NCBI RefSeq assembly: GCF_000687455.2 | Contig: NZ_JGVW01000096.1 | Span: 62,001-126,000, forward strand | Direction of reading: 5' to 3' | DNA: 64,000 nt | DNA from: Burkholderia sp. lig30 | GTDB taxonomy: Bacteria; Pseudomonadota; Gammaproteobacteria; Burkholderiales; Burkholderiaceae | In this document: positions 1 through 9,084 of the stretch, piece after piece | How the letters are laid out: every line of letters begins with the position of its first letter | Numbering within the stretch: the first letter of the stretch is position 1 | The notes under the pieces: model-generated | The model's input: only the letters and a program-made list of their open reading frames with translations | Databases searched by the model: none | What the model was told of the DNA's origin: nothing | Translations under genes and position numbers: made by a program

Positions 1-495
1 GGTTGCGGGCGAGGGCTCATTTGAGTGTGCCCAAATCGTGACCACTTTTGCATGCTCCGCGAGGTGGTCAGGGGCAAGGTGAGCATACCGCAAGACGTGC
101 TCGTGCTTGGTCCATCCCCCCAATTCCATCAGGCGGTTCAACGGCGTCCCCGCCTGGACGTGCCAGCTCGCCCAAGTGTGGCGCACGTCGTGGAACCGGA
201 AGTTGTCGATTCTGGCCCGCGCGCATTGGCGATCCCACTGCGCGCTGCACCATCCCTCGATCGGCTTGCCGTTCCTCAGAAAGACGTGAGTCTGGTGCTT
301 GCCGATCCAGCGGCGGATCGTCGCCACGGCGTCGTCGTTCAGCGGGACGCCGATCGGCTTGCGGGCCTTCGCCTGATCTGGATAGATCCACGCCCGGCGG
401 TTCACCAGATCGACCTGCGACCATTCGAGATTCAGCAGATTCGCCCGGCGCAGACCGGTTGCGAAGCCAAGAATCGCCACGTCCCGAAGCCAGTC
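1..495 (-). pseudogene. Phage tyrosine recombinase (integrase), catalytic C-terminal fragment
   Basis: The minus-strand reading frame entering from about 510 gives the C-terminal catalytic domain of a phage integrase and stays open past the left edge of the window. The visible signatures, in order, are box I arginine (ATGLRRANLLNLEW), a beta-hairpin lysine (AKARKPIG), box II HDVRHTW, the GGWTKHE segment and the nucleophile tyrosine in VLRYAHLA. The N-terminal core-binding domain is missing: upstream of the DWLRD segment the sequence runs straight into a late control gene D read on the opposite strand. It is therefore 5'-truncated and almost certainly inactive. The left att site lies outside the window. 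Confidence 0.85.
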
Positions 496-496
496 T

Positions 497-1213
497 GTGC
501 GGATGGCCGACATCGTCGGCGACGTCGCGAGGCGCAACAAGTGGTCAGCCGCATGCGATGTCGATGTCGTCGTGCCACGGATCGACCAGTTCGGCGAAAG
601 CGATCTGCATTTCATTACGCGGATCGCGCGTCAGTACGGCGCAACCGCGACCGCCAAGGCCGGCAAGCTGATCGTGCTGCCTCGCGGGGGCGGCAAGAGC
701 GCGAGCGGCAAGCCGCTGCCCGTCGTGACGCTCACGCCCGAGCAGCTGATTGATTACGACATCACGTTTCCCGATCGGGCCAGCTTCGCGGCGGTACGGA
801 CGAAGGTCCATGACCGCAAGACGGGCAAGAAGATCGACCTGACGATCCCGAACCCGGATGCACAGCCCGGCGCGGCGGCCGTGCATACCGAGCGGCATGC
901 GTTTGCCAGTTCGCAGGCGGCCAAGTCCGCGGCCACGTCGCGGCTCGCGACGCTCAACCGGCACACGTCGGTGAGCAGCTTCACGTTGCGCGGCCGTGCC
1001 GATCTGGCGGCGGAAAAGACGATCGGACTGAAGGGGGGCAAGGAGGGTGTCGACGGCGAGTTTCTGGTCGAGTCGGTCGAACACACGTTCTCGTCGCGCG
1101 GCTGGCTCACGACCGTCACGCTGAACGGCGGCAACAAGGGGAAAGCAAAGGTCGGCCACGGCAAGAAGCCGACGAAGAAGATCAATCTGGTTGTGCCGGC
1201 ACCGCAGAAGTAA
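497..1213 (+). pseudogene. Phage late control gene D protein (GpD), 5'-truncated
   Basis: The 238 residues match the C-terminal half of the P2-type late control/tail protein D, seen in RIDQFGESDLHFITRIA, the domain near LTPEQLIDYDITF, and the FLVESVEHTF segment. In P2-like phages this protein forms the hub joining baseplate and tail tube. Intact members are about 330-400 residues, so roughly 100-150 N-terminal residues are missing. The truncation coincides with the integrase fragment on the other strand at about 480-510. The GTG at 497 is only the first start codon after the break and is unlikely to be a native start. A strong terminator follows. Confidence 0.8.
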
Positions 1214-1234
1214 CGCGACGGTGTCGGATCTGGC

Positions 1235-1270
1235 AAGCCGCCTCGAGGCAACTCGGGCGGCTTTTTCTTT
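1235..1270 (+). terminator. Rho-independent terminator after gene D
   Basis: A stem of about 12 bp (AAGCCGCCTCGAG paired with CTCGGGCGGCTT, 4-nt loop) is followed by a run rich in T. It closes the phage tail transcript before the lysis cassette. Confidence 0.85.
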
Positions 1271-1291
1271 TTTACGGGTGAAGAGGTGGGA

Positions 1292-1576
1292 ATGCAAGAC
1301 CACGAAAAGACGATTCTGGAGCTGGTCGTCATGGGCGGGCTCATCGGTGTCGCAAAGGTGCTGGTCGGTAGCGAGCAGCTGACGTACCGGCTGGTGGCCG
1401 GCCGGGCGATGCTCGGCTCGGCGACGTCGATGGTGGCCGGCATTGCGCTGCTGCAGATTCCGGATTTGCCGCCGATCGCGCTGCTCGGGATGGGGAGCGC
1501 GCTCGGCATCATCGGCTCGCAGTATCTGGAGGTGCTGCTGCGGCGTAACGCGAAGCGCCTGTTCGGGGAGAAGTGA
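1292..1576 (+). CDS. Phage holin
   Basis: This 94-residue, strongly hydrophobic protein is first in a holin-endolysin-Rz cassette. A short charged N-terminus (MQDHEKT) precedes about three hydrophobic segments (near residues 10-25, 36-55 and 58-78), and the tail is basic (RRNAKRLFGEK), as is typical of small phage holins. It would form inner-membrane lesions that release the endolysin. ATG 1292 is preferred over GTG 1286 because AGAGGTGG lies just upstream of it. The stop codon abuts the endolysin start, consistent with translational coupling. The assignment rests on topology and position, because holins share little sequence. Confidence 0.75.
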   Translation: MQDHEKTILELVVMGGLIGVAKVLVGSEQLTYRLVAGRAMLGSATSMVAGIALLQIPDLPPIALLGMGSALGIIGSQYLEVLLRRNAKRLFGEK

Positions 1577-1578
1577 CG

Positions 1579-2073
1579 ATGGCACGCATCAGCATGGCCG
1601 CCGCCGGTGGCAAAAACCGTGTCGCGTTCCTCGACATGATCGCTGTGAGCGAGATCGGTCCCGCGTTGCTCGCGAAGTCGGACGGCGGCTACAACGTGCT
1701 GGTCGGATCGACGCCTGCACGACCGTTGCTGTTTGCGAGCTACGCGGCGCATCCGAACGTGCTTAACCGGCAAATTCCGGTGCCGTCGACGGCGGCCGGC
1801 CGCTATCAGGCGCTGAATCGCTGGTGGCGTATCTATCAGGCGCAGATGAAGCTGCCGGAATTCGGGCCGGTTTCGCAGGACCGGTACGCGCTGCAGCAGC
1901 TGCGCGAGCACGGTGCGCTTCCGCTGATTGACGCGGGCCGATTCGGCGAGGCGGTCGCGAAGGTGTCGAACGTCTGGGCGAGCCTGCCCGGTGCCGGGTA
2001 TGGCCAGCACGAAAACCGGATCGAGCAACTGCTGGCCGCGTACCGAGCGGCCGGCGGGGAGGTGACGGCATGA
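1579..2073 (+). CDS. Phage endolysin, GH104 lambda R-like transglycosylase
   Basis: The protein has 164 residues and the same layout as lambda endolysin R: NRVAFLDMIAVSE near the N-terminus (catalytic Glu in the SE pair), then NVLVG, the substrate-groove motif GRYQALNRWW, ALQQLREHGALP, and SNVWASLPGAGYGQ. Lambda R cleaves the MurNAc-GlcNAc bond and leaves 1,6-anhydro ends, and the same chemistry is expected here. There is no signal peptide, so export depends on the holin. ATG 1579 has GGGGAGAAG upstream. The stop overlaps the Rz start in an ATGA arrangement. Confidence 0.9.
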   Translation: MARISMAAAGGKNRVAFLDMIAVSEIGPALLAKSDGGYNVLVGSTPARPLLFASYAAHPNVLNRQIPVPSTAAGRYQALNRWWRIYQAQMKLPEFGPVSQDRYALQQLREHGALPLIDAGRFGEAVAKVSNVWASLPGAGYGQHENRIEQLLAAYRAAGGEVTA

Positions 2074-2564
2074 CCTGGTTCGATCCGCGTATCTGGCTGG
2101 TCGTCGTGGCCGGCCTCGTGGCCGGCTCGGCCGGCGGGTATTTCAAGGGACACCGGGACGCCGATCAGCCGGCCAAGGTCGAGGATCAGGCGAGGCAGAT
2201 CAAGGATCTGACCGCCGAGCGTGACGTATTCCGCCGCCGCACGGCGGCTCAACAGGAGATCGCAACCGATGCTGCGAAAGAACGTGACCAGGCGCGCGCT
2301 GATGCCGTTGCCGCTGCTTCTGCTGCTGACGGCCTGCGCCGGCAGGTCGCCATCCTCGTCGACGGCGTACGACATTCCGCCGCTGCGGCCGGAGGCTCGC
2401 CAGCCGGCGACGCCCTCGATCTGCTTGCCGACGTGCTCGGCCGGGCCGATGCGCGAGCGGGAGAGCTGGCAGCAATCGCTGACGAACGCGGCATCGCCGG
2501 CCAGCAGTGCGAGCGCAGCTACGACGCGTTGACGGGCGACACGCCATTCAATCCGCAGCGATAA
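2070..2564 (+). CDS. Rz-like inner-membrane spanin (DUF2514 type)
   Basis: This is a 164-residue protein with one N-terminal membrane anchor (IWLVVVAGLVAGSAGGY, about residues 8-24). An alpha-helical, Ala/Asp/Arg-rich periplasmic region of likely coiled-coil character follows (about 32-100). This is the usual i-spanin topology. With Rz1 it would bridge the periplasm and fuse inner and outer membranes at lysis. It overlaps the endolysin stop by 4 nt and contains the entire rz1 gene in the +1 frame. Confidence 0.85.
   Translation: MTWFDPRIWLVVVAGLVAGSAGGYFKGHRDADQPAKVEDQARQIKDLTAERDVFRRRTAAQQEIATDAAKERDQARADAVAAASAADGLRRQVAILVDGVRHSAAAAGGSPAGDALDLLADVLGRADARAGELAAIADERGIAGQQCERSYDALTGDTPFNPQR
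2269..2532 (+). CDS. Rz1-like outer-membrane spanin lipoprotein, nested in Rz
   Basis: This 87-residue ORF lies wholly inside the Rz gene in the +1 frame. Its start, ATG 2269, follows AGGAGA at a good distance. The N-terminus is basic (MLRKNVTRR), then comes a leucine stretch and the lipobox LLTAC with Cys23, so it should be lipidated and sent to the outer membrane. The mature part is proline-containing (PPLRPEARQPATP), as in other Rz1 proteins. An embedded rz/rz1 pair is the classic lambdoid arrangement. Confidence 0.88.
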   Translation: MLRKNVTRRALMPLPLLLLLTACAGRSPSSSTAYDIPPLRPEARQPATPSICLPTCSAGPMRERESWQQSLTNAASPASSASAATTR

Positions 2565-2601
2565 CGCGGCAATCGAGGCCGGGCGGCCTCGAAAGAAACA
2601 G

Positions 2602-2645
2602 GGCGACCGGGGGAATGTTCGCGCATTGTCCCCGGTCGCCTTTCC
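2602..2645 (+). terminator. Terminator after the lysis cassette
   Basis: An 11-bp perfect stem (GGCGACCGGGG with CCCCGGTCGCC, 17-nt loop) is followed by TTT. It ends the holin-endolysin-Rz/Rz1 transcript. Confidence 0.8.
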
Positions 2646-2732
2646 ACTGTCTACGCCAGTGAATCGGCCAAGGCCCTGCTTACCTACGTAGGCGGGCCGG
2701 ATTTTACACCAAGTTTAAAAATTGCTTTCACA

Positions 2733-3521
2733 ATGGCAAATCCCATCATTCCCTGGATCGGCGGCAAGCGCCGTCTGGCAGACCATTTGATTCCGCGCTT
2801 TCCGGCGCACGATTGCTACGTCGAGGTGTTCGCGGGCGGGGCCGCGCTGTTCTTCCTCCGGCCGCCGGCCAAGGTTGAAGTGGTCAACGACGTCAACGGC
2901 GAGCTGGTGAATCTGTATCGGGTCGTGCAGCATCATCTGGAGGAGTTCGTGCGGCAGTTCAAATGGGCGCTGACGAGCCGGCAGGTGTTCGAGTGGCTCA
3001 AGCAGACGGTCCCGGAAACCCTCACCGATATCCAGCGCGCGGCACGGTTCTACTACCTGCAGAAAAGTTGCTTTGGCGGCAAGCTGGAGGGGCAGACGTT
3101 CGGCACGCGGACGGAGCATCCACCCGGCTTGAATTTGTTGCGTCTTGAGGAAGAATTGTCTGCCGCGCATTTGCGGCTGGCGAATGCATTCGTTGAGCGG
3201 CTTGACTGGGCTGCGTGCATTGACCGTTACGATCGGCCGCATACGCTGTTCTATCTCGATCCGCCGTATTACGAGACGGAGGGGTACGGCGTGGCGTTCC
3301 CATTCGCGGAATACGAGAAGATGGCCGAGTGCCTTCGCTCGATCAAGGATCGGGCGATCGTGAGTCTGAACGACCACCCGGATATTCGGCGCGTGTTCGA
3401 CGGGTTTCACATCGAGACTGTGCCGATCCAGTACACGGTCGGGGGCGGGAAGGGCGTCGACCGCAACGAGCTGATCATCTTCAGTTGGGATGACGCCGCG
3501 CAACCGGTCGGGCTGTTCTGA
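2733..3521 (+). CDS. Phage-type D12-class DNA N6-adenine methyltransferase
   Basis: The 262-residue protein is a Dam/DpnM-type (D12) methylase: motif I-like PWIGGKR at residues 7-13, the VFAGGAAL SAM-binding strand, ND at 52-53, and catalytic DPPY at 176-179. Members transfer a methyl group from S-adenosylmethionine to adenine N6, often in GATC or a related site. The recognition sequence cannot be read from the protein. No restriction enzyme is adjacent, so it looks like an orphan, possibly protecting phage DNA or altering host epigenetics. An A/T-rich stretch just upstream may hold its own promoter. A hairpin follows the gene. Confidence 0.9.
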   Translation: MANPIIPWIGGKRRLADHLIPRFPAHDCYVEVFAGGAALFFLRPPAKVEVVNDVNGELVNLYRVVQHHLEEFVRQFKWALTSRQVFEWLKQTVPETLTDIQRAARFYYLQKSCFGGKLEGQTFGTRTEHPPGLNLLRLEEELSAAHLRLANAFVERLDWAACIDRYDRPHTLFYLDPPYYETEGYGVAFPFAEYEKMAECLRSIKDRAIVSLNDHPDIRRVFDGFHIETVPIQYTVGGGKGVDRNELIIFSWDDAAQPVGLF

Positions 3522-3534
3522 AAGACGAAGTGAA

Positions 3535-3559
3535 GCCGGCGCGGGATGACCGCGCCGGC
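3535..3559. terminator. Hairpin between convergent methylase and unknown gene
   Basis: GCCGGCGCGG pairs perfectly with CCGCGCCGGC around a 5-nt loop. There is no good T run, so it is only a likely terminator. It lies between two genes that converge. Confidence 0.5.
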
Positions 3560-3600
3560 GAGGTTATATGCTCGTGTAGTCCGATGTCTGTTAATTGAGG

Positions 3601-4224
3601 TCAATCGAACCTTGCTACGTCGATTGTCCTGCGGAGCTTGTTGAGTGGGAACGATTCGGGGGCACCGCTTTCCTTCAGTTCTTTCTCGGCCGCGCTGGCC
3701 AGCTTGTCGATGTGACGAAGTGCGCGGCGTACGTGTACGACCTCGAGCACGAAGCGCTGCTCTAGCGTGAGCCGCCCCTTTCCCGTGTAGCCAGATTGTC
3801 TCCAGGTGTCGCGCAGATCCGTCCAGCTCAGGCGCTGGAAGTCGGGCAACTTCATCGCCTTGTCCGATCCGGGATCTGGCTCGTCCGGCGCATCGCGGAG
3901 TTTGCATCGGATTGCCTCGCGCGCCCGCCATTCGTCAGAGAATGGCGCGATTTGCTCACGGGGGCTATCCATTCTGCCTAGCCGCACAATTTCCCTCTCG
4001 ATTTTCGCCTTGAGCAGGCGCAATGGTGCGCAGTACTTCATCATGTCCGGCTCGAGGTTCATGACCGCGCGAGACGCATCGCCAGCCAGCTCGGAGAGTT
4101 CGCGCAGCATAACCCGTTGGTGCAGCACTTCAAGTATCAGCAAATGCACGTCTGCGTACGTGCACGTGCGCCACCATTTCGACATCGCGTCGAATTGGGG
4201 CGGCTCAAATGGGGGTAAGATCAT
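3601..4224 (-). CDS. Uncharacterised protein, possibly LexA-controlled
   Basis: The 207-residue product from ATG 4224 is not recognised. It is soluble and charged, with no signal peptide or membrane segment. Features are FEPPQFDAMSKWW near the N-terminus, helical Arg/Glu-rich stretches, the central segment FQRLSWTDLRDTW and a basic C-terminal part. An upstream in-frame start at 4284 exists, but it would read through the LexA box, so 4224 is preferred although no clear ribosome site is visible. The start lies 16 nt from a perfect LexA operator, which suggests DNA-damage control. The setting suggests a phage or phage-cargo gene. Confidence 0.6.
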   Translation of the reverse strand: MILPPFEPPQFDAMSKWWRTCTYADVHLLILEVLHQRVMLRELSELAGDASRAVMNLEPDMMKYCAPLRLLKAKIEREIVRLGRMDSPREQIAPFSDEWRAREAIRCKLRDAPDEPDPGSDKAMKLPDFQRLSWTDLRDTWRQSGYTGKGRLTLEQRFVLEVVHVRRALRHIDKLASAAEKELKESGAPESFPLNKLRRTIDVARFD

Positions 4225-4239
4225 GACGCGAGGATGTTG

Positions 4240-4255
4240 CTGTATGAATATACAG
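4240..4255. promoter_or_regulatory. LexA box (SOS operator)
   Basis: CTGTATGAATATACAG fits the proteobacterial LexA consensus CTGT-N8-ACAG exactly, with an AT-rich centre. It sits between the start of the minus-strand unknown gene (4224) and the plus-strand SRAP remnant, and could repress both. Confidence 0.8.
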
Positions 4256-4308
4256 TATGTTGCGCGGTAAGATGCTCGCGTCAAGTCTCAAAATTGGGGA
4301 GCGGGCAG

Positions 4309-4523
4309 TGCGCACAAACTACCAAGCGCCAACAGAAGATATGGGGATCAGTGAGCTGAAGCTTGGCATCGGCGACCTATACCGTCGCGACCAGTGGGAG
4401 CCGGATGTCTATCCCGACTATGCAGCTCCGATCGCATGGCGGATGGTGATGGCCTCGGTGTCGTCAAGGCGGTGTTTGGCTTCTGGCCGAAGTTCATGCC
4501 ATCGTCTAATCATCATCTGATCC
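4309..4523 (+). pseudogene. SOS response-associated peptidase (SRAP/YedK-like) remnant
   Basis: The N-terminal part reads as the SRAP family start (TNYQAPTEDMGISEL, then YRRDQWEPDVYPDYAAPIA). After a frameshift near 4435-4442 the next frame gives VFGFWPKFMP, another conserved SRAP block. Intact members are about 200-230 residues and use the Cys right after the initiator Met to crosslink abasic sites. Here the codon at that place is CGC (Arg), the start has become GTG, and nothing recognisable follows 4523. The gene therefore lost its nucleophile, its frame and its C-terminal two-thirds. It lies directly downstream of the LexA box. Confidence 0.7.
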
Positions 4524-4611
4524 GGTACTAATGGTTACCTTGCCGACGGTGTGAAATGCCGATCGGGATCGGAAACGGACGGCCGCGAAATTCATGAATA
4601 TAGGTGGGGCG

Positions 4612-4657
4612 CTCATCAGTCAGGCGTAAAGTTGCTTTGCCCGAGCTTACAAGCGCC
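4612..4657. repeat. Left copy of imperfect direct repeat flanking the cargo segment
   Basis: The blocks CTCAT, AGGCGTAA, GTT, CGAGCTTAC and GCGCC occur in this order. The same blocks recur at 7665-7702, the main difference being an 8-nt gap between GTT and CGAGCTTAC. The two copies bracket the HEPN-like, RES and unknown genes. Confidence 0.5.
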
Positions 4658-5138
4658 TCCGTTGTTCCCGTTTGGTGCTCACCTTTCGGCCAGTTCGCCT
4701 TCCAATGTGAGTATTTGTCGCTTTGGGGGATTGCAGTTTTGCTCCTGCTGCCAAATTATCTGGATTAGGGGCCGGACATATTGGCTGTGCTGTGACACTA
4801 TCGAAGCAACCACTTCCCCGTGTTCCAGGAAATGCGTCGATCAAACGATTTCGCATATCGGAATCGTGGGAAAAAACTGTCATCCATATACTAAAGAACC
4901 CTGTGCTTTTCGCTAGGTTCACCGCGACTCTCCGCAACGCATCGTTGCCCGGATTCGCCTCCACTTCGCCTTTTGTGGCAACCGCGACTCCCCAAGCTTG
5001 AGTTCGTTGAGCAACACGGTCCAATGCGACTTGCTCGCCATTTTCGTCAAGGTAGGCGTCGTCCACTGGCCTGCATGTGTCAACTGCCAGGTCGATGCAC
5101 CGGCAAAATATGATCAAAGTTCCGGGGATCTGTCGCAC
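4647..5138 (-). CDS. Unrecognised protein downstream of the RES gene
   Basis: The 163-residue ORF begins with GTG 3 nt after the RES-gene stop on the same strand, which argues for co-transcription. I do not recognise the family. Visible features are several Cys residues near the N-terminus, an acidic segment (DDAYLDENGEQ), a hydrophobic FFSIWMTVF stretch near residue 83, the motif RNRLIDAFPGTRG followed by GCFD, and a very basic C-terminus (GRRTGRKVSTKREQRRRL). Its 3' end runs into the left direct repeat. It may be a genuine third gene of the segment or the decayed end of a longer one. Confidence 0.4.
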   Translation of the reverse strand: MRQIPGTLIIFCRCIDLAVDTCRPVDDAYLDENGEQVALDRVAQRTQAWGVAVATKGEVEANPGNDALRRVAVNLAKSTGFFSIWMTVFSHDSDMRNRLIDAFPGTRGSGCFDSVTAQPICPAPNPDNLAAGAKLQSPKATNTHIGRRTGRKVSTKREQRRRL

Positions 5139-5141
5139 CCA

Positions 5142-6293
5142 TCAGGCTACCCCAGCTGGACCGAACTTGAGGTCATACTCAACGCGCGTCACGAGCAGCC
5201 GGTTAATGCATTTGACCTCGACCTTTCCCTCCGCAACGGGGTACCCGAACAACGCAAGGTTGGGAACAATCTTCGATCGTTCATGTTCCGCGTGCCGAGC
5301 GTGCCTCGTGTATCGAGCGATCACTCGACCCGAGAGTCCGTAGGCGGTCTCGAAGGGAATTGCCCCGGTTCGCAGGAGGCTAAAGTACGACGGGTATTCG
5401 ATGCCGTCGAAGCCCGCCTGTCCCGCCATAAGCGAGATGCGCCGCGTAATGTCGTAGGAGTGGCTCGCTGCAAGGAACAGCATGTGAACGGCCATATCGA
5501 GGCTCTCGAACTCTGTCACGCCTTCGGGTTCACGCAGTACTTCCGACAGATCGAGGAGCTTCAACGGACGCGTCGGCGCAAGCGTTGCCACATACGTTTC
5601 GTCCTCAGCGGAGACACGGCATTCATGCACGCATACTTGCAAGTCTGCTGAACCGTAGAGCACGGGTTGACCAGGGGAATCCAGTCGTCCCCTGCCACTA
5701 AATTCCTTCGGTGGTGCATCGTATTCAGCAGGATCCTCTGGGTTCTTTGGATTCACCCGTAGCCGAAAGAAGATGTTCTCCGGTGGGAGCTCCTTGCCCG
5801 GATACTCGTTTAGTATTCGCTGGATAACTGCGCCCCGTCGTTGTTCATCTTGCATCTCCTTGAGCGGTTCGACTTCCCCCACCATCCACAAGCGCGGTCC
5901 ATAGGGGAAGACTCCGATATTGAGTAGCCTCTCCAAAAGAGAGAGGTCACTCTTGAACCACGGGGGCACGGTGACGGAACTAGCCTGCTTGGTATTGAAC
6001 GCAAGCGTAGGTGCCCCTCCGAAGCGCAACCTGCGGATCGACCCCCGGTTGAAGAAGGAGCGTGCAGCATCATGGAGCGCCGCTATGTTCACCTTCCAGC
6101 TGCTGTGTTGGCCGCAGTTCGGGCATGCCGCGTCGGTACGTTCGCCGCGGCGCGCGACCTCTAGGCCCAAGCCGAAATCCGAGAAGCAGCCAGAGCAGCA
6201 AACATGCTCCGGACGATCGTCATGAAGCGGGCCATCGCACTCCCAGGCCATGATCGCCTCAAATATTTTTTCGAATTGCTCGTCGTTGTCCAT
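5142..6293 (-). CDS. RES-domain protein with N-terminal zinc-ribbon
   Basis: The 383-residue protein has two parts. Residues about 30-62 carry VCCSGC and CPNC pairs (Cys33/36 and Cys57/60), a zinc ribbon like that of the HEPN/RES N-terminal domains described for conflict systems. Residues about 171-345 are a RES domain: FFRLR, then GRGRLDSPG (Arg201/203), VLYGSAD (Tyr213) and VHECR (Glu224), which correspond to the Arg-Tyr-Glu active site of RES toxins. Known RES toxins such as MbcT degrade NAD+ by phosphorolysis. No Xre-type antitoxin is adjacent, so control may be internal, through the N-terminal domain, or by neighbours. It is unlike the compact toxin-antitoxin RES proteins (about 150-230 residues). 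Confidence 0.75.
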   Translation of the reverse strand: MDNDEQFEKIFEAIMAWECDGPLHDDRPEHVCCSGCFSDFGLGLEVARRGERTDAACPNCGQHSSWKVNIAALHDAARSFFNRGSIRRLRFGGAPTLAFNTKQASSVTVPPWFKSDLSLLERLLNIGVFPYGPRLWMVGEVEPLKEMQDEQRRGAVIQRILNEYPGKELPPENIFFRLRVNPKNPEDPAEYDAPPKEFSGRGRLDSPGQPVLYGSADLQVCVHECRVSAEDETYVATLAPTRPLKLLDLSEVLREPEGVTEFESLDMAVHMLFLAASHSYDITRRISLMAGQAGFDGIEYPSYFSLLRTGAIPFETAYGLSGRVIARYTRHARHAEHERSKIVPNLALFGYPVAEGKVEVKCINRLLVTRVEYDLKFGPAGVA

Positions 6294-6407
6294 GTTCTTG
6301 TGCGATTCCTATTTGCCTAGTCACCGTGCTTCGTCGTGAGCTAACGCAATGTCCGTTGGGGTCGCTTAGATAGAATTATTGGCAGATCGATTTTTCGTAA
6401 CATGCAT

Positions 6408-7478
6408 TTAGATTATTTCTTCTATGCTAGTTAGATAGTCCATTCGATGCTGCCACAGCTTAATGGTGACATCCGATTCGATATTTCGCATGGCATTGCC
6501 AGTCAGCATGCCGTGCGCCGAAAGACGAAAGCTTGACTCGGCTTGATAGTAAGCATCAAAAGCGCATGTTGCCGCTCTGAATAGGGCGGCTAGATCATGC
6601 TCGGTTGATTCCGTGGAAGAAATCTTTGACATTATCCGTTCCTGAACCGCCAGTGCGCTAGCCTGAATCGCGCCAGCTCGTGCCATCGCCTGAACTGAGT
6701 CGCCATATCCACTTCGCGATTGACCTGGATTCAAATCTTGCTCCACCAGTTCATAGAGGCAATTCACGAAAAGTCGTGCGCTATTCAGGAATTTTGAAAG
6801 TTCATCCGACGAGACGGAATTGAAATTAGCTTCGTGAGCAACTAAATGGCGAATCTCAAAGATAGATGCAATGTCCAGCAAGAGACCGCTTGGCTCACTA
6901 AGCAACAATGGAGCGGTTTTCTGTTTTTGTTCCGCCTGACCTCCACCAAAAAGCTCTTCTTCGCTTGGCTCGACATACTCGCGAATGTCGGAAATTATTC
7001 TATTGAATTTTTTTCGTTGATCTTTGTCGCAAAATAAAGACTCAAAATGCGATGCGATGTGTTCTAGTCGACTTACGGGGAGCGAATGTGAAACCAAATC
7101 TCCGAACGTTATTGTCCCATCGCTTAGCGCCTTGGTTAGCAAGAAATCAAATTTAATGTGCTCCTTAAAAGCCTCTGCCCTCTCGATGTAAGGCGAGCCG
7201 GAGTCCACCAATCTCTTGATGGCTTCACGAACACTTACTTCAATACAGGATGCGATACCCATTATGTGCAAGGCACGCATAGTCGCATCTGACTCGCCAA
7301 TCCGTCGAGAGCTTGCTTCCAAGTCGTAGAGCTCCAAGTTCCCATGGAGATACTTGTTCGAGGCTCTAGCGTTTTTCTCTTCTATTTCGGAAATTACGTT
7401 TCGCTTAGACATGAAACACCGATCAATGGAGTTGGCGAAGGATCGCTCGGTTAGGTAAATGTCTTCAGAGTGTGCCAC
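6408..7478 (-). CDS. HEPN-like protein with possible LprI-type C-terminal domain
   Basis: The product has 356 residues and is mostly alpha-helical, with a base composition clearly more A/T-rich than the surrounding chromosome. IFEIRHLVAHE at about residues 207-216 contains R-x4-H (Arg210, His215), the hallmark of HEPN ribonuclease-fold proteins. It sits on a helix after a region resembling MAE_28990-type HEPN proteins. The last 60 residues (from AALFRAATCAFDAYYQAESSF) recall the DUF1311/LprI repeat. ATG 7478 gives the longest form; Met23 (7412) is an alternative. It lies upstream of the RES gene on the same strand with a 114-bp gap. The domain calls are by eye. Confidence 0.55.
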   Translation of the reverse strand: MAHSEDIYLTERSFANSIDRCFMSKRNVISEIEEKNARASNKYLHGNLELYDLEASSRRIGESDATMRALHIMGIASCIEVSVREAIKRLVDSGSPYIERAEAFKEHIKFDFLLTKALSDGTITFGDLVSHSLPVSRLEHIASHFESLFCDKDQRKKFNRIISDIREYVEPSEEELFGGGQAEQKQKTAPLLLSEPSGLLLDIASIFEIRHLVAHEANFNSVSSDELSKFLNSARLFVNCLYELVEQDLNPGQSRSGYGDSVQAMARAGAIQASALAVQERIMSKISSTESTEHDLAALFRAATCAFDAYYQAESSFRLSAHGMLTGNAMRNIESDVTIKLWQHRMDYLTSIEEII

Positions 7479-7664
7479 ATCAGATCGAACGTCCGCTACG
7501 GAGACGGATGAATGGCCCGTTCGGGTTGCGGATTCAACCGGTCGATCTCGAAATCCGCTAGCGTAGGTTGTAGCGTAGCTTTTTGATTCGGGCCTTATCA
7601 GCTAAGGCGAAGAGACCTATGTATCATCGGCGTATGGCCGGCCAGGACATCGGTCGGCATGGTA

Positions 7665-7702
7665 CTCATTGGCTAGGCGTAAGGTTCGAGCTTACCGGCG
7701 CC
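7665..7702. repeat. Right copy of imperfect direct repeat flanking the cargo segment
   Basis: It carries CTCAT, AGGCGTAA, GTT, CGAGCTTAC and GCGCC in the same order as 4612-4657, about 3.05 kb away. Confidence 0.5.
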
Positions 7703-7738
7703 GCCGCCACCTTCGCCCGAAGCGCGGGTGTCGGCCAA

Positions 7739-7839
7739 GAAGTGGCGTTCACTTCTTGGCGCGGCGCGACATTCGAGCGCTCCCTCCGCAACGGTTACGC
7801 CAACCCCTCTCGTGTTTGTCCGATGAGGCGCTAACCGTT
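7739..7839. other. Pair of hairpin-forming inverted repeats
   Basis: GAAGTG-N5-CACTTC lies at 7739-7755. A 12-bp stem (AACGGTTA-CGCC with GGCG-c-TAACCGTT, one bulge) with a 25-nt loop lies at 7790-7839. No T run follows either one. The role is unknown; it may be an untranslated RNA or a recombination site. Confidence 0.4.
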
Positions 7840-8064
7840 CGAGAGGAGCGGATCTTCCGCCGATCCGACCATCGCGATATGGCGTGCCATCGCCACGACG
7901 AGCGCGCGAGGTTCGTATGTGACCAAAGCGTGCCCACATCTATACAATACGGGGCAGAAAATGCCGAAAAAGCGACAAACTGGCAAAGTCCCGAAGCTGA
8001 CCGGCGCGAGACTTTTTAGTTAAAAATCAATGGTTTGCTGGTTTAACTCTACTTCTTTCTTGTT

Positions 8065-9084
8065 GTGTCCCTACTGAAGAAATGCGGCGCCGCGCTCCTG
8101 ACGGTGGCCGTCGTTGTGGCCGCCGCCGGCGCGGGCGGCGCGTACTACTGGGCGACCCGGCCGCTGCTGCTCGGCGCCGCGGCGCTCGACATCACGATCA
8201 CGCCCCGCAGCAGCGTGCGCAGCGTCGCGCAGCAGCTGGAGCGCGCCGGCGTGCCGATCGAGCCGGACGGCTTCGTCGCGATGACGCGCGTGCTCGGCCT
8301 GTCGAGCCGGCTGAAATCCGGCAACTACGAATTCAAGAGCGGCATCACCCCGTACGAGGTGCTCCAGAAGATCGCGCGCGGCGACGTCAACGAATCCGTC
8401 GCAGCGGTGATCGAGGGCTGGACCTTCAAGCGGATGCGCGCGGAGCTGGACGCGAATCCGGCCCTCGTGCACACGGCGGCAGGCATGAGCGACGCCGAGC
8501 TGCTGCGCGCGATCGGCGCATCGGAGAGCGAGATCCGGCGCGGCAGCGGCGAAGGGCTGTTCTTTCCGGATACCTACCTGTTCGACAAGGGCACGAGCGA
8601 CCTGAACATCTACCGGCGCGCGTACCGTCTGATGCAGATGCGCCTCGACGCGGCATGGAGCGCCCGCGCGCCGGGGCTGCCGTACAGGACGCCCTACGAA
8701 GCGCTGACGATTGCGTCGATCGTCGAAAAGGAAACGGGGCACGCCGCGGATCGCGCGCTGGTCGCGGCGGTGTTCGCGAACCGGCTGCGTGTCGGCATGC
8801 CGCTGCAGACCGATCCTTCGGTGATCTACGGGCTCGGCGACACGTACGACGGCCGCCTGCGCAAGCGCGACCTGCAGGCCGACACTCCCTACAATACCTA
8901 CACCCGCCGCGGGTTGCCGCCGACGCCGATCGCGTTGCCGGGCACGGCGGCGCTCGAAGCCGCGGTCAACCCGGCGGCGACGGGCGCGCTCTATTTCGTC
9001 GCGAAGGGCGACGGGACGAGCGTGTTCTCCGACACCCTCGGCGATCACAACAAGGCCGTGGGCAAATACATACGAGGTCAATAA
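8065..9084 (+). CDS. mltG: Endolytic murein transglycosylase MltG (YceG-like)
   Basis: The 339-residue protein has an N-terminal membrane anchor (about residues 6-24), a LysM-like region, and the YceG catalytic core with [19 protein letters not shown], the catalytic Glu in ASIVEKETG, and the [10 protein letters not shown] and [14 protein letters not shown] blocks. MltG cuts nascent glycan strands in the inner-membrane-proximal layer and is thought to set strand length. The start is GTG 8065; no ATG is available in frame nearby. Its stop overlaps the tmk start (TAATG), so the two are coupled. Confidence 0.95.

What the first reader, a model, noticed from the sequence alone, without database searches (positions are those of the whole stretch)
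4612..7702. Three-kb cargo segment with HEPN-like and RES genes, flanked by direct repeats
Three same-strand genes (a protein with an R-x4-H HEPN motif, a zinc-ribbon RES protein, and an unrecognised 163-residue ORF) lie between a decayed prophage and the core genome. HEPN and RES domains are both effector folds of toxin or abortive-infection systems: one cuts RNA, the other destroys NAD+. No antitoxin-like partner or known system with this combination is recognised, so this may be an undescribed defence module. The repeat-bounded, lower-GC segment suggests a mobile unit.
Basis: partly seen in the sequence, partly recalled or inferred. Interest (0 to 1): 0.75.

Follow-up and report, generated by a model that had tools for sequence, protein, structure and literature searches.

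The report
Prophage remnant carrying two toxin-like genes
A decayed bacterial virus left in the chromosome carries two intact genes that look like stand-alone anti-virus enzymes, one that would destroy the cell's NAD+ and one that would cut RNA, but the other genomes examined show no sign that the two form one system.

Summary
The genes are real; the proposed joint system is not supported. 5142-6293(-) is a zinc-ribbon RES protein; its model's five best PDB matches are RES toxins, MbcT first. 6408-7478(-), probable start 7412, is a HEPN protein with R-x4-H (no usable model). The "unrecognised" ORF is a C-terminal remnant of the Septu nuclease PtuB. The repeats are partial copies of the mutS 5' region, a published prophage integration site in Burkholderia (PMC2612704, passages). 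Synteny puts the whole insertion at the window start to about 7917, between ygfZ and mltG. None of 28 other RES loci holds a HEPN relative. A 48-50% identical HEPN lies on a P4-like satellite contig with the defence reverse transcriptase DRT1. In 6 of 11 related prophages, tested cargo ORFs at the same end match defence-related families. Best reading: two independent single-gene defence candidates on a prophage end. An antitoxin-free RES effector would matter: a 2024 paper knew no immune role for RES toxin-antitoxin systems (PMC11535050, passages).

The parts
1..615 (-). C-terminal fragment of a tyrosine integrase at the left end of the insertion (ORF runs about 9 nt beyond the window start)
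   Evidence: PF00589 6.7e-27, model 27-170 of 172, on G000:C96:61992-62615
497..1213 (+). phage baseplate hub (GPD) gene, N-terminally short
   Evidence: PF05954 4.7e-16, profile 90-303 of 305
1286..1576 (+). phage holin
   Evidence: PF04550 8.6e-32
1573..2564 (+). lysis genes (endolysin and Rz-like spanins)
   Evidence: 77% nucleotide match to phage BcepC6B endolysin and spanins over 1603-2533; DUF2514 at 2070-2564; no Pfam match for 1573-2070 itself
2733..3521 (+). Dam-type adenine methyltransferase of the prophage
   Evidence: PF02086 2.8e-26; 93.5% identical copy in G029
3601..4284 (-). conserved prophage-end protein (R227), the marker used to find related prophages
   Evidence: 29 of 65 genus genomes have a match, own included; the 11 strongest places outside the window have E 1.6e-54 or lower at 60-66% identity
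4308..4433 (+). N-terminal fragment of an SRAP-family gene (broken)
   Evidence: tblastn with the intact G029 SRAP, 56% over 43 aa; PF02586 on the G029 copy
4612..4661 (.). left repeat: partial copy of the region upstream of mutS
   Evidence: alignment score 44, shuffle maximum 25; blastn E 1.5e-4
4647..5138 (-). PtuB (Septu HNH protein) C-terminal remnant; HNH part absent
   Evidence: PDLC00315 6.1e-23, model 136-217 of 227; no Pfam match
5142..6293 (-). zinc-ribbon RES protein, 383 aa, predicted NAD+-degrading effector
   Evidence: PF08808 3.7e-11; 22-sequence alignment with invariant C33 C36 C57 C60 R177 R179 R203 Y213 E224 S302; AlphaFold pLDDT 82; five best PDB matches are MbcT (two chains), NatT (two) and P. 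putida Xre-RES
6408..7478 (-). HEPN (RiboL-PSP) protein with R-x4-H; probable start at 7412 (334 aa); predicted RNase
   Evidence: PF18735 9.5e-10; 48-50% identical relative on a P4-like satellite contig
7601..7737 (.). right repeat: copy of the mutS 5' end (about 23 codons, read on -) and upstream region
   Evidence: tblastn 7669-7601, 70% over 23 aa, and blastn 7620-7737, 76%; score 114, shuffle maximum 31; published 15-bp mutS site with 2 mismatches at 7619-7633
7918..9084 (+). host DNA resumes here; mltG starts at 8065
   Evidence: synteny with G047, G048 and G059; PF02618 on mltG

Best explanation
The segment is the cargo end of a decayed prophage inserted between ygfZ and mltG of a probable Burkholderia. 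It holds a broken Septu nuclease (PtuB remnant) and two intact genes that most likely act independently as abortive-infection effectors. The RES protein would be a stand-alone zinc-ribbon NAD+ phosphorylase: a phage-derived signal, possibly sensed by the zinc ribbon and helical N-terminus, opens the RES site and NAD+ is depleted. The HEPN protein would be a stand-alone RNase that becomes active on infection, as Tha does. Shown: gene identity, RES fold by model, conserved RES residues and the HEPN motif, the insertion boundaries, the mutS origin of the repeats, variable cargo at this end in related prophages, and the HEPN relative near DRT1 on a P4-like contig. Inferred: enzyme activity, triggers and any defence phenotype.
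For: RES: PF08808; the model's five best PDB matches are RES toxins, MbcT at 1.0e-5; residues invariant in 22 aligned sequences, the 21 relatives being 43-56% identical to the window protein; relatives lie on 5 viral contigs, one with a tape-measure gene (L060), and in G029's related prophage at the same end. HEPN: PF18735; a 48-50% relative on a contig with a P4 alpha-gene match of 74.9% and with DRT1a/DRT1b; a weaker relative (28%) sits between DUF4062 and a restriction endonuclease on a plasmid. Location: of 11 other R227-marked loci, 6 (L013, L111, L112, L113, L114, L116) carry ORFs near SRAP that match defence-related families. Independence: outside RES itself, no neighbour family is shared by more than two of 28 RES loci, apart from three related viral contigs.
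Against: No activity or phage assay. PADLOC gives no match at E 1 for either protein and none at 0.001 for the L136 HEPN piece. Several RES neighbours elsewhere are housekeeping-like (nitroreductase, MFS, CobW, GntR). The defence labels rest on chosen ORFs: PADLOC supports G056, G006, G034 and weakly G029; G033 and G038 have Pfam support only and no PADLOC match, and PIN or DUF3800 as defence-related is my judgement. No cargo of L115, L117 and L120 was scanned; L118 gave helix-turn-helix and weak RmrA matches, L119 a SWIM finger. There was no matched control. G000's second RES copy lacks the first cysteine pair and the L136 HEPN gene is broken, so decay is common. The HEPN fold could not be modelled.
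Confidence: 0.6

Rival explanations
1. HEPN and RES form one co-dependent two-gene defence module (an RNase plus an NADase, or sensor plus effector).
For: Same strand, 114-bp gap, both below the G+C of the surroundings; no promoter-like match in the gap between them (the scan as a whole is at chance level).
Against: 0 of 28 other RES loci hold a HEPN relative; PF18735 is in 4 of 27 other RES-bearing genomes or records and in none of them within the RES locus held; the HEPN's closest relative is near DRT1 without RES.
Confidence: 0.12
2. Toxin-antitoxin pair in which one protein neutralises the other (RES toxin without Xre, HEPN as partner or the reverse).
For: Adjacent operon-like pair; RES and HEPN are both known toxin folds (PMC3710099 passages; PMC11535050 passages).
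Against: No Xre/MbcA/ParS-type or nucleotidyltransferase gene in the segment; HEPN keeps R-x4-H, so it looks like an effector; pairing not conserved.
Confidence: 0.1
3. Decaying neutral cargo: both genes are remnants on their way to loss, like the PtuB and SRAP fragments beside them.
For: Little of a phage is left in 8 kb; integrase, SRAP and PtuB are broken; a paralogue and relatives elsewhere are damaged.
Against: RES has all residues invariant in its relatives and no stops; HEPN is as long as its relatives and keeps the motif.
Confidence: 0.18

Closest known systems
RES toxins of RES-Xre type modules (MbcT, NatT, ParT)
   Same: RES domain by Pfam and by predicted fold; conserved Arg, Tyr and Ser in similar order (NatT residues from PMC11535050 passages).
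   Different: Extra N-terminal zinc ribbon and helical region, 383 aa, and no Xre/MbcA-type antitoxin gene beside it.
Zinc ribbon - HEPN/RES-NTD1 - RES proteins (PF18870; PMC3710099 Table 2, passages)
   Same: Order zinc ribbon, middle domain, RES; hhalign 96.7% probability to three RES proteins found with PF18870, two of them above its cut-off.
   Different: PF18870 itself matches none of 17 members of the window family at E 10, so the middle domain is divergent or different.
Tha (prophage-encoded HEPN anti-phage RNase, PMC11087260, passages)
   Same: Prophage-borne HEPN protein of similar length (301 and 334 aa) with R-x4-H.
   Different: Tha's HEPN domain is C-terminal; here it spans roughly residues 38-224 (334-aa numbering), with a further C-terminal region that is LprI-like in two relatives (one above, one below the Pfam cut-off). 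Sequence relation to Tha was not tested.
Septu (PtuA/PtuB)
   Same: The third ORF is a piece of PtuB1.
   Different: No PtuA and no HNH half in the segment; not a working Septu system.
P2/P4 antiviral hotspots (PMC9122126, abstract start and passages)
   Same: Variable, partly defence-type cargo at a fixed place in a prophage family; the HEPN's relative lies on a P4-like contig.
   Different: Here the place is beside SRAP at the end of another, probably Burkholderia, prophage family; in the window, G029 and G056 mutS-derived repeats bound the cargo.

Membership tests
RES domain family (PF08808) | Match above the curated cut-off | tested here: met
   43.7 bits against 23.2; 17 of 17 aligned members, window included, match at E 10 or better
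RES domain family (PF08808) | RES fold | tested here: met
   Foldseek: MbcT 1.0e-5 (TM 0.58 by target length), NatT 1.7e-3, Xre-RES 3.0e-3; model pLDDT 82. Only the two MbcT chains pass E 0.001.
RES domain family (PF08808) | NAD+ cleavage | not testable with these tools
   Conserved residues only; exact mapping to NatT active-site residues not made residue by residue
RES-Xre type II toxin-antitoxin | Adjacent Xre/MbcA/ParS antitoxin gene | tested here: not met
   None in the segment. In relatives, 20 chosen neighbours scanned gave one GntR-type regulator and no Xre match; on plasmid L097 a gene annotated helix-turn-helix lies 65 bp from RES on the other strand, followed by an IS630 transposase
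HEPN_RiboL-PSP (PF18735) | Match above the curated cut-off and R-x4-H | tested here: met
   39.1 bits against 28.4; R210 and H215 invariant in 7 aligned proteins
HEPN_RiboL-PSP (PF18735) | HEPN four-helix fold | tested here: inconclusive
   Model all-helical but pLDDT 47
HEPN-MNT toxin-antitoxin | Adjacent nucleotidyltransferase gene | tested here: not met
   No such gene among segment ORFs
Tha anti-phage system | Activation by a phage tail protein | not testable with these tools
   PMC11087260 passages
Septu | PtuA ATPase and complete PtuB with HNH | tested here: not met
   Only model positions 136-217 of PtuB; no PtuA among the segment ORFs; the rest of the genome was not searched for PtuA
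HEPN/RES-NTD1 - RES proteins | PF18870 domain between zinc ribbon and RES | tested here: inconclusive
   hhalign 96.7% from the zinc ribbon into RES, but no PF18870 match in 17 members

The most novel reading that the evidence does not exclude
A zinc-ribbon RES protein that needs no antitoxin is a phage-triggered NAD+-depleting immune effector, and it is one of a set of defence cassettes that a mutS-targeting prophage family adds one after another, each insertion leaving a copy of the mutS 5' end. Such copies bound or separate cargo genes in the window (2 copies), G029 (2) and G056 (3, one of only 28 bp); G034 has one, G061 one too weak to count, and the other 7 of 12 loci none. 148 kb of control DNA gave one marginal hit, E 0.006.
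Probability: 0.3. Interest if true: 0.65.

Novelty: new member of a known kind. Interest (0 to 1): 0.35.

Why it matters
RES toxins are widespread, but the NatT paper of 2024 says that none of the RES-domain toxin-antitoxin systems had been implicated in bacterial immunity (PMC11535050, passage seen; later papers listed were not read). An antitoxin-free RES family carried by a prophage and by viral contigs is a direct candidate to test that. The HEPN protein, with a relative near DRT1 on a P4-like contig, is a second untested single-gene candidate. The SRAP end of this prophage family is a place to look for more.

Tried and rejected
Two-gene HEPN-RES module: rejected as a conserved system in this sample. 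My home-made HEPN profile did not even find the window HEPN, so that negative was discarded and replaced by PF18735 searches and tblastn. PF18870 as part of the RES protein: no match. RNA element or retron RNA near the PtuB remnant: no Rfam match in 1-9000 at gathering thresholds. tRNA attachment site: no tRNA in the window or in the 11 flanking loci tested. Promoter and terminator scan: at chance level. HEPN structure: model unusable, not searched. Sequence search of the PDB: only weak hits for RES (best E 0.33) and none for the other two. Phage collection: no RES, HEPN or R227 relative by tblastn at 1e-5. E. coli genomes: no match to the L136 HEPN gene. The 20-22 bp mutS match in L115 is too weak to count. 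An earlier count said that the C49 RES copy has no CxxC; the alignment shows that it lacks only the first pair.
Full report
What is there. The window lies in a 5.5-Mb draft genome, contig C96. The genus is not named by any tool; Burkholderia is my inference from phage matches and the mutS site literature. Comparison with three relatives that lack the insertion (G047, G048, G059) shows foreign DNA from about 30 bases before the window start to 7917, between ygfZ and mltG. Its left end is an integrase C-terminal fragment. Then come a baseplate-hub gene, holin, lysis genes, a Dam-type methyltransferase, a conserved protein called R227 here, and a broken SRAP gene.

The three genes. The RES gene (5142-6293) is intact. 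The protein has four invariant cysteines and family-invariant R177, R179, R203, Y213, E224 and S302 in 22 aligned sequences. An AlphaFold model from those sequences (mean pLDDT 82) has RES toxins as its five best PDB matches: MbcT at 1.0e-5 and 2.2e-5, NatT at 1.7e-3 and 2.2e-3, and the Pseudomonas putida Xre-RES toxin at 3.0e-3, with ParT at ranks 7-9. NatT's active-site residues are given as R23, R82, Y93, N193 and S184 (PMC11535050, passages); I did not map them residue by residue. The HEPN gene passes the PF18735 cut-off and keeps R-x4-H, but its model is not usable (pLDDT 47). The third ORF is the C-terminal third of PtuB1; the HNH half and PtuA are absent from the segment.

The repeats. 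The right copy scores 114 against a shuffle maximum of 31 and includes about 23 mutS codons; the left copy scores 44 against 25. A 15-bp mutS recombination site for a Burkholderia prophage is published (PMC2612704, passages); the window has it with 2 mismatches at 7619-7633. Two other places in the window also match with 2 mismatches, and up to 3 mismatches gave 14 hits against 4.6 expected, so the site alone proves nothing and the longer alignment carries the argument. mutS itself is present in this genome, split only by a contig break, so the copies are not the native gene. Similar copies bound or separate cargo genes in G029 and G056; G034 has one, G061 a very weak one and the other seven of the 11 related loci none; 148 kb of control DNA gave one marginal hit. 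How a prophage with mutS-derived ends came to lie beside mltG is unexplained. In G006 and G061 related prophages with a full-length integrase end about 4.6 kb from mltG.

Is it a system? RES relatives were collected from 20 contigs of genome contigs, 5 viral contigs, one plasmid, G029 and a paralogue in the same genome. In these 28 loci tblastn finds no relative of the HEPN. Outside RES itself, no neighbour family was shared by more than two loci, apart from three related viral contigs. In 27 other RES-bearing genomes or records, PF18735 occurs in 4, none overlapping the RES locus held. Of 65 genus genomes, 6 match the RES protein; beyond the window, long matches (51% and 55%) occur only in G029 and the own paralogue, the rest being short. 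The HEPN is in 1 of 65, the window's own, and in 2 of 398 phylum genomes, the own and one partial match. With the RES alignment, 9 of 398 phylum genomes match, only the own over most of the profile. Both genes are therefore rare and, in this sample, travel separately.

Where the HEPN belongs. A viral-contig search with a three-protein alignment found one relative, 48-50% identical, whose gene is split by a frame change. That contig matches the phage P4 alpha gene at 74.9% over 1.7 kb and carries DRT1a and DRT1b. P4-like satellites are a published defence hotspot, and HEPN proteins are mentioned among its cargo (PMC9122126, passages). Weaker relatives on two plasmids have an LprI-like C-terminus; in them PF18735 is below the cut-off or not found, and one sits between DUF4062 and a restriction endonuclease gene. 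No held paper contains both HEPN and LprI.

The prophage end. R227 matches 29 of 65 genus genomes. I took the 11 strongest places outside the window. Six carry ORFs beside SRAP that match defence-related families: G029 RES, HNH and a sub-threshold PD-(D/E)XK; G056 an AriA/PtuA-type ATPase and PDC-S05; G006 DndB/DpdB and a Dam-type methyltransferase; G033 SocA-Panacea; G034 PDC-S32 with a sub-threshold AbiJ-NTD4; G038 PIN and DUF3800. G033 and G038 have no PADLOC match, nor do three further cargo ORFs of G056 and G029 tested. G026 gave helix-turn-helix and weak RmrA matches and G032 a SWIM finger; cargo of G030, G053 and G061 was not scanned. There was no matched control for this scan, so the hotspot is a lead, not a proven enrichment.

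Mechanism and verdict. The most economical reading is two independent single-gene effectors on a prophage end: a RES protein that depletes NAD+ and a HEPN protein that cuts RNA, each triggered by infection. Tha is a tested example of a prophage-encoded HEPN RNase triggered by a tail protein (PMC11087260, passages). The trigger, the activity and the phenotype are inferred here. The zinc-ribbon and RES arrangement is already noted in print (PMC3710099, passages), and PtuB, RES and HEPN are known families, so this is a new member of a known kind.

Noticed in passing
L012:8329-9369 (G000:C49): Second RES gene of the same subfamily in this genome, about 50% identical; its start lacks the first pair of zinc-ribbon cysteines. 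Neighbours include a patatin and a T5orf172 gene.
   Followed up: partly
L013:3470-10577 (G029): Related prophage end with RES, HNH and a possible PD-(D/E)XK gene; two mutS-like copies bound a 403-aa gene with no Pfam or PADLOC match.
   Followed up: partly
L111 (G056): Three mutS-like copies separate cargo: one side with PDC-S05, then an AriA/PtuA-like ATPase, then a small ORF, before suhB.
   Followed up: partly
L136:342-7007: P4-like satellite contig with DRT1a/DRT1b, a split HEPN gene and a 281-aa gene without a PADLOC match.
   Followed up: partly
window:7740-7917: About 180 bp between the mutS copy and resumed host DNA is not assigned to anything.
   Followed up: no
L062, L063, L064: Three viral contigs share conserved neighbours around a RES gene of this family, so one phage group appears to carry it stably; L064 also shares a gene with the Dam methyltransferase region of L013.
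   Followed up: no
L046:5914-6811: Bradyrhizobium relative of the RES gene is split into two frames (decayed), near the end of its contig.
   Followed up: no
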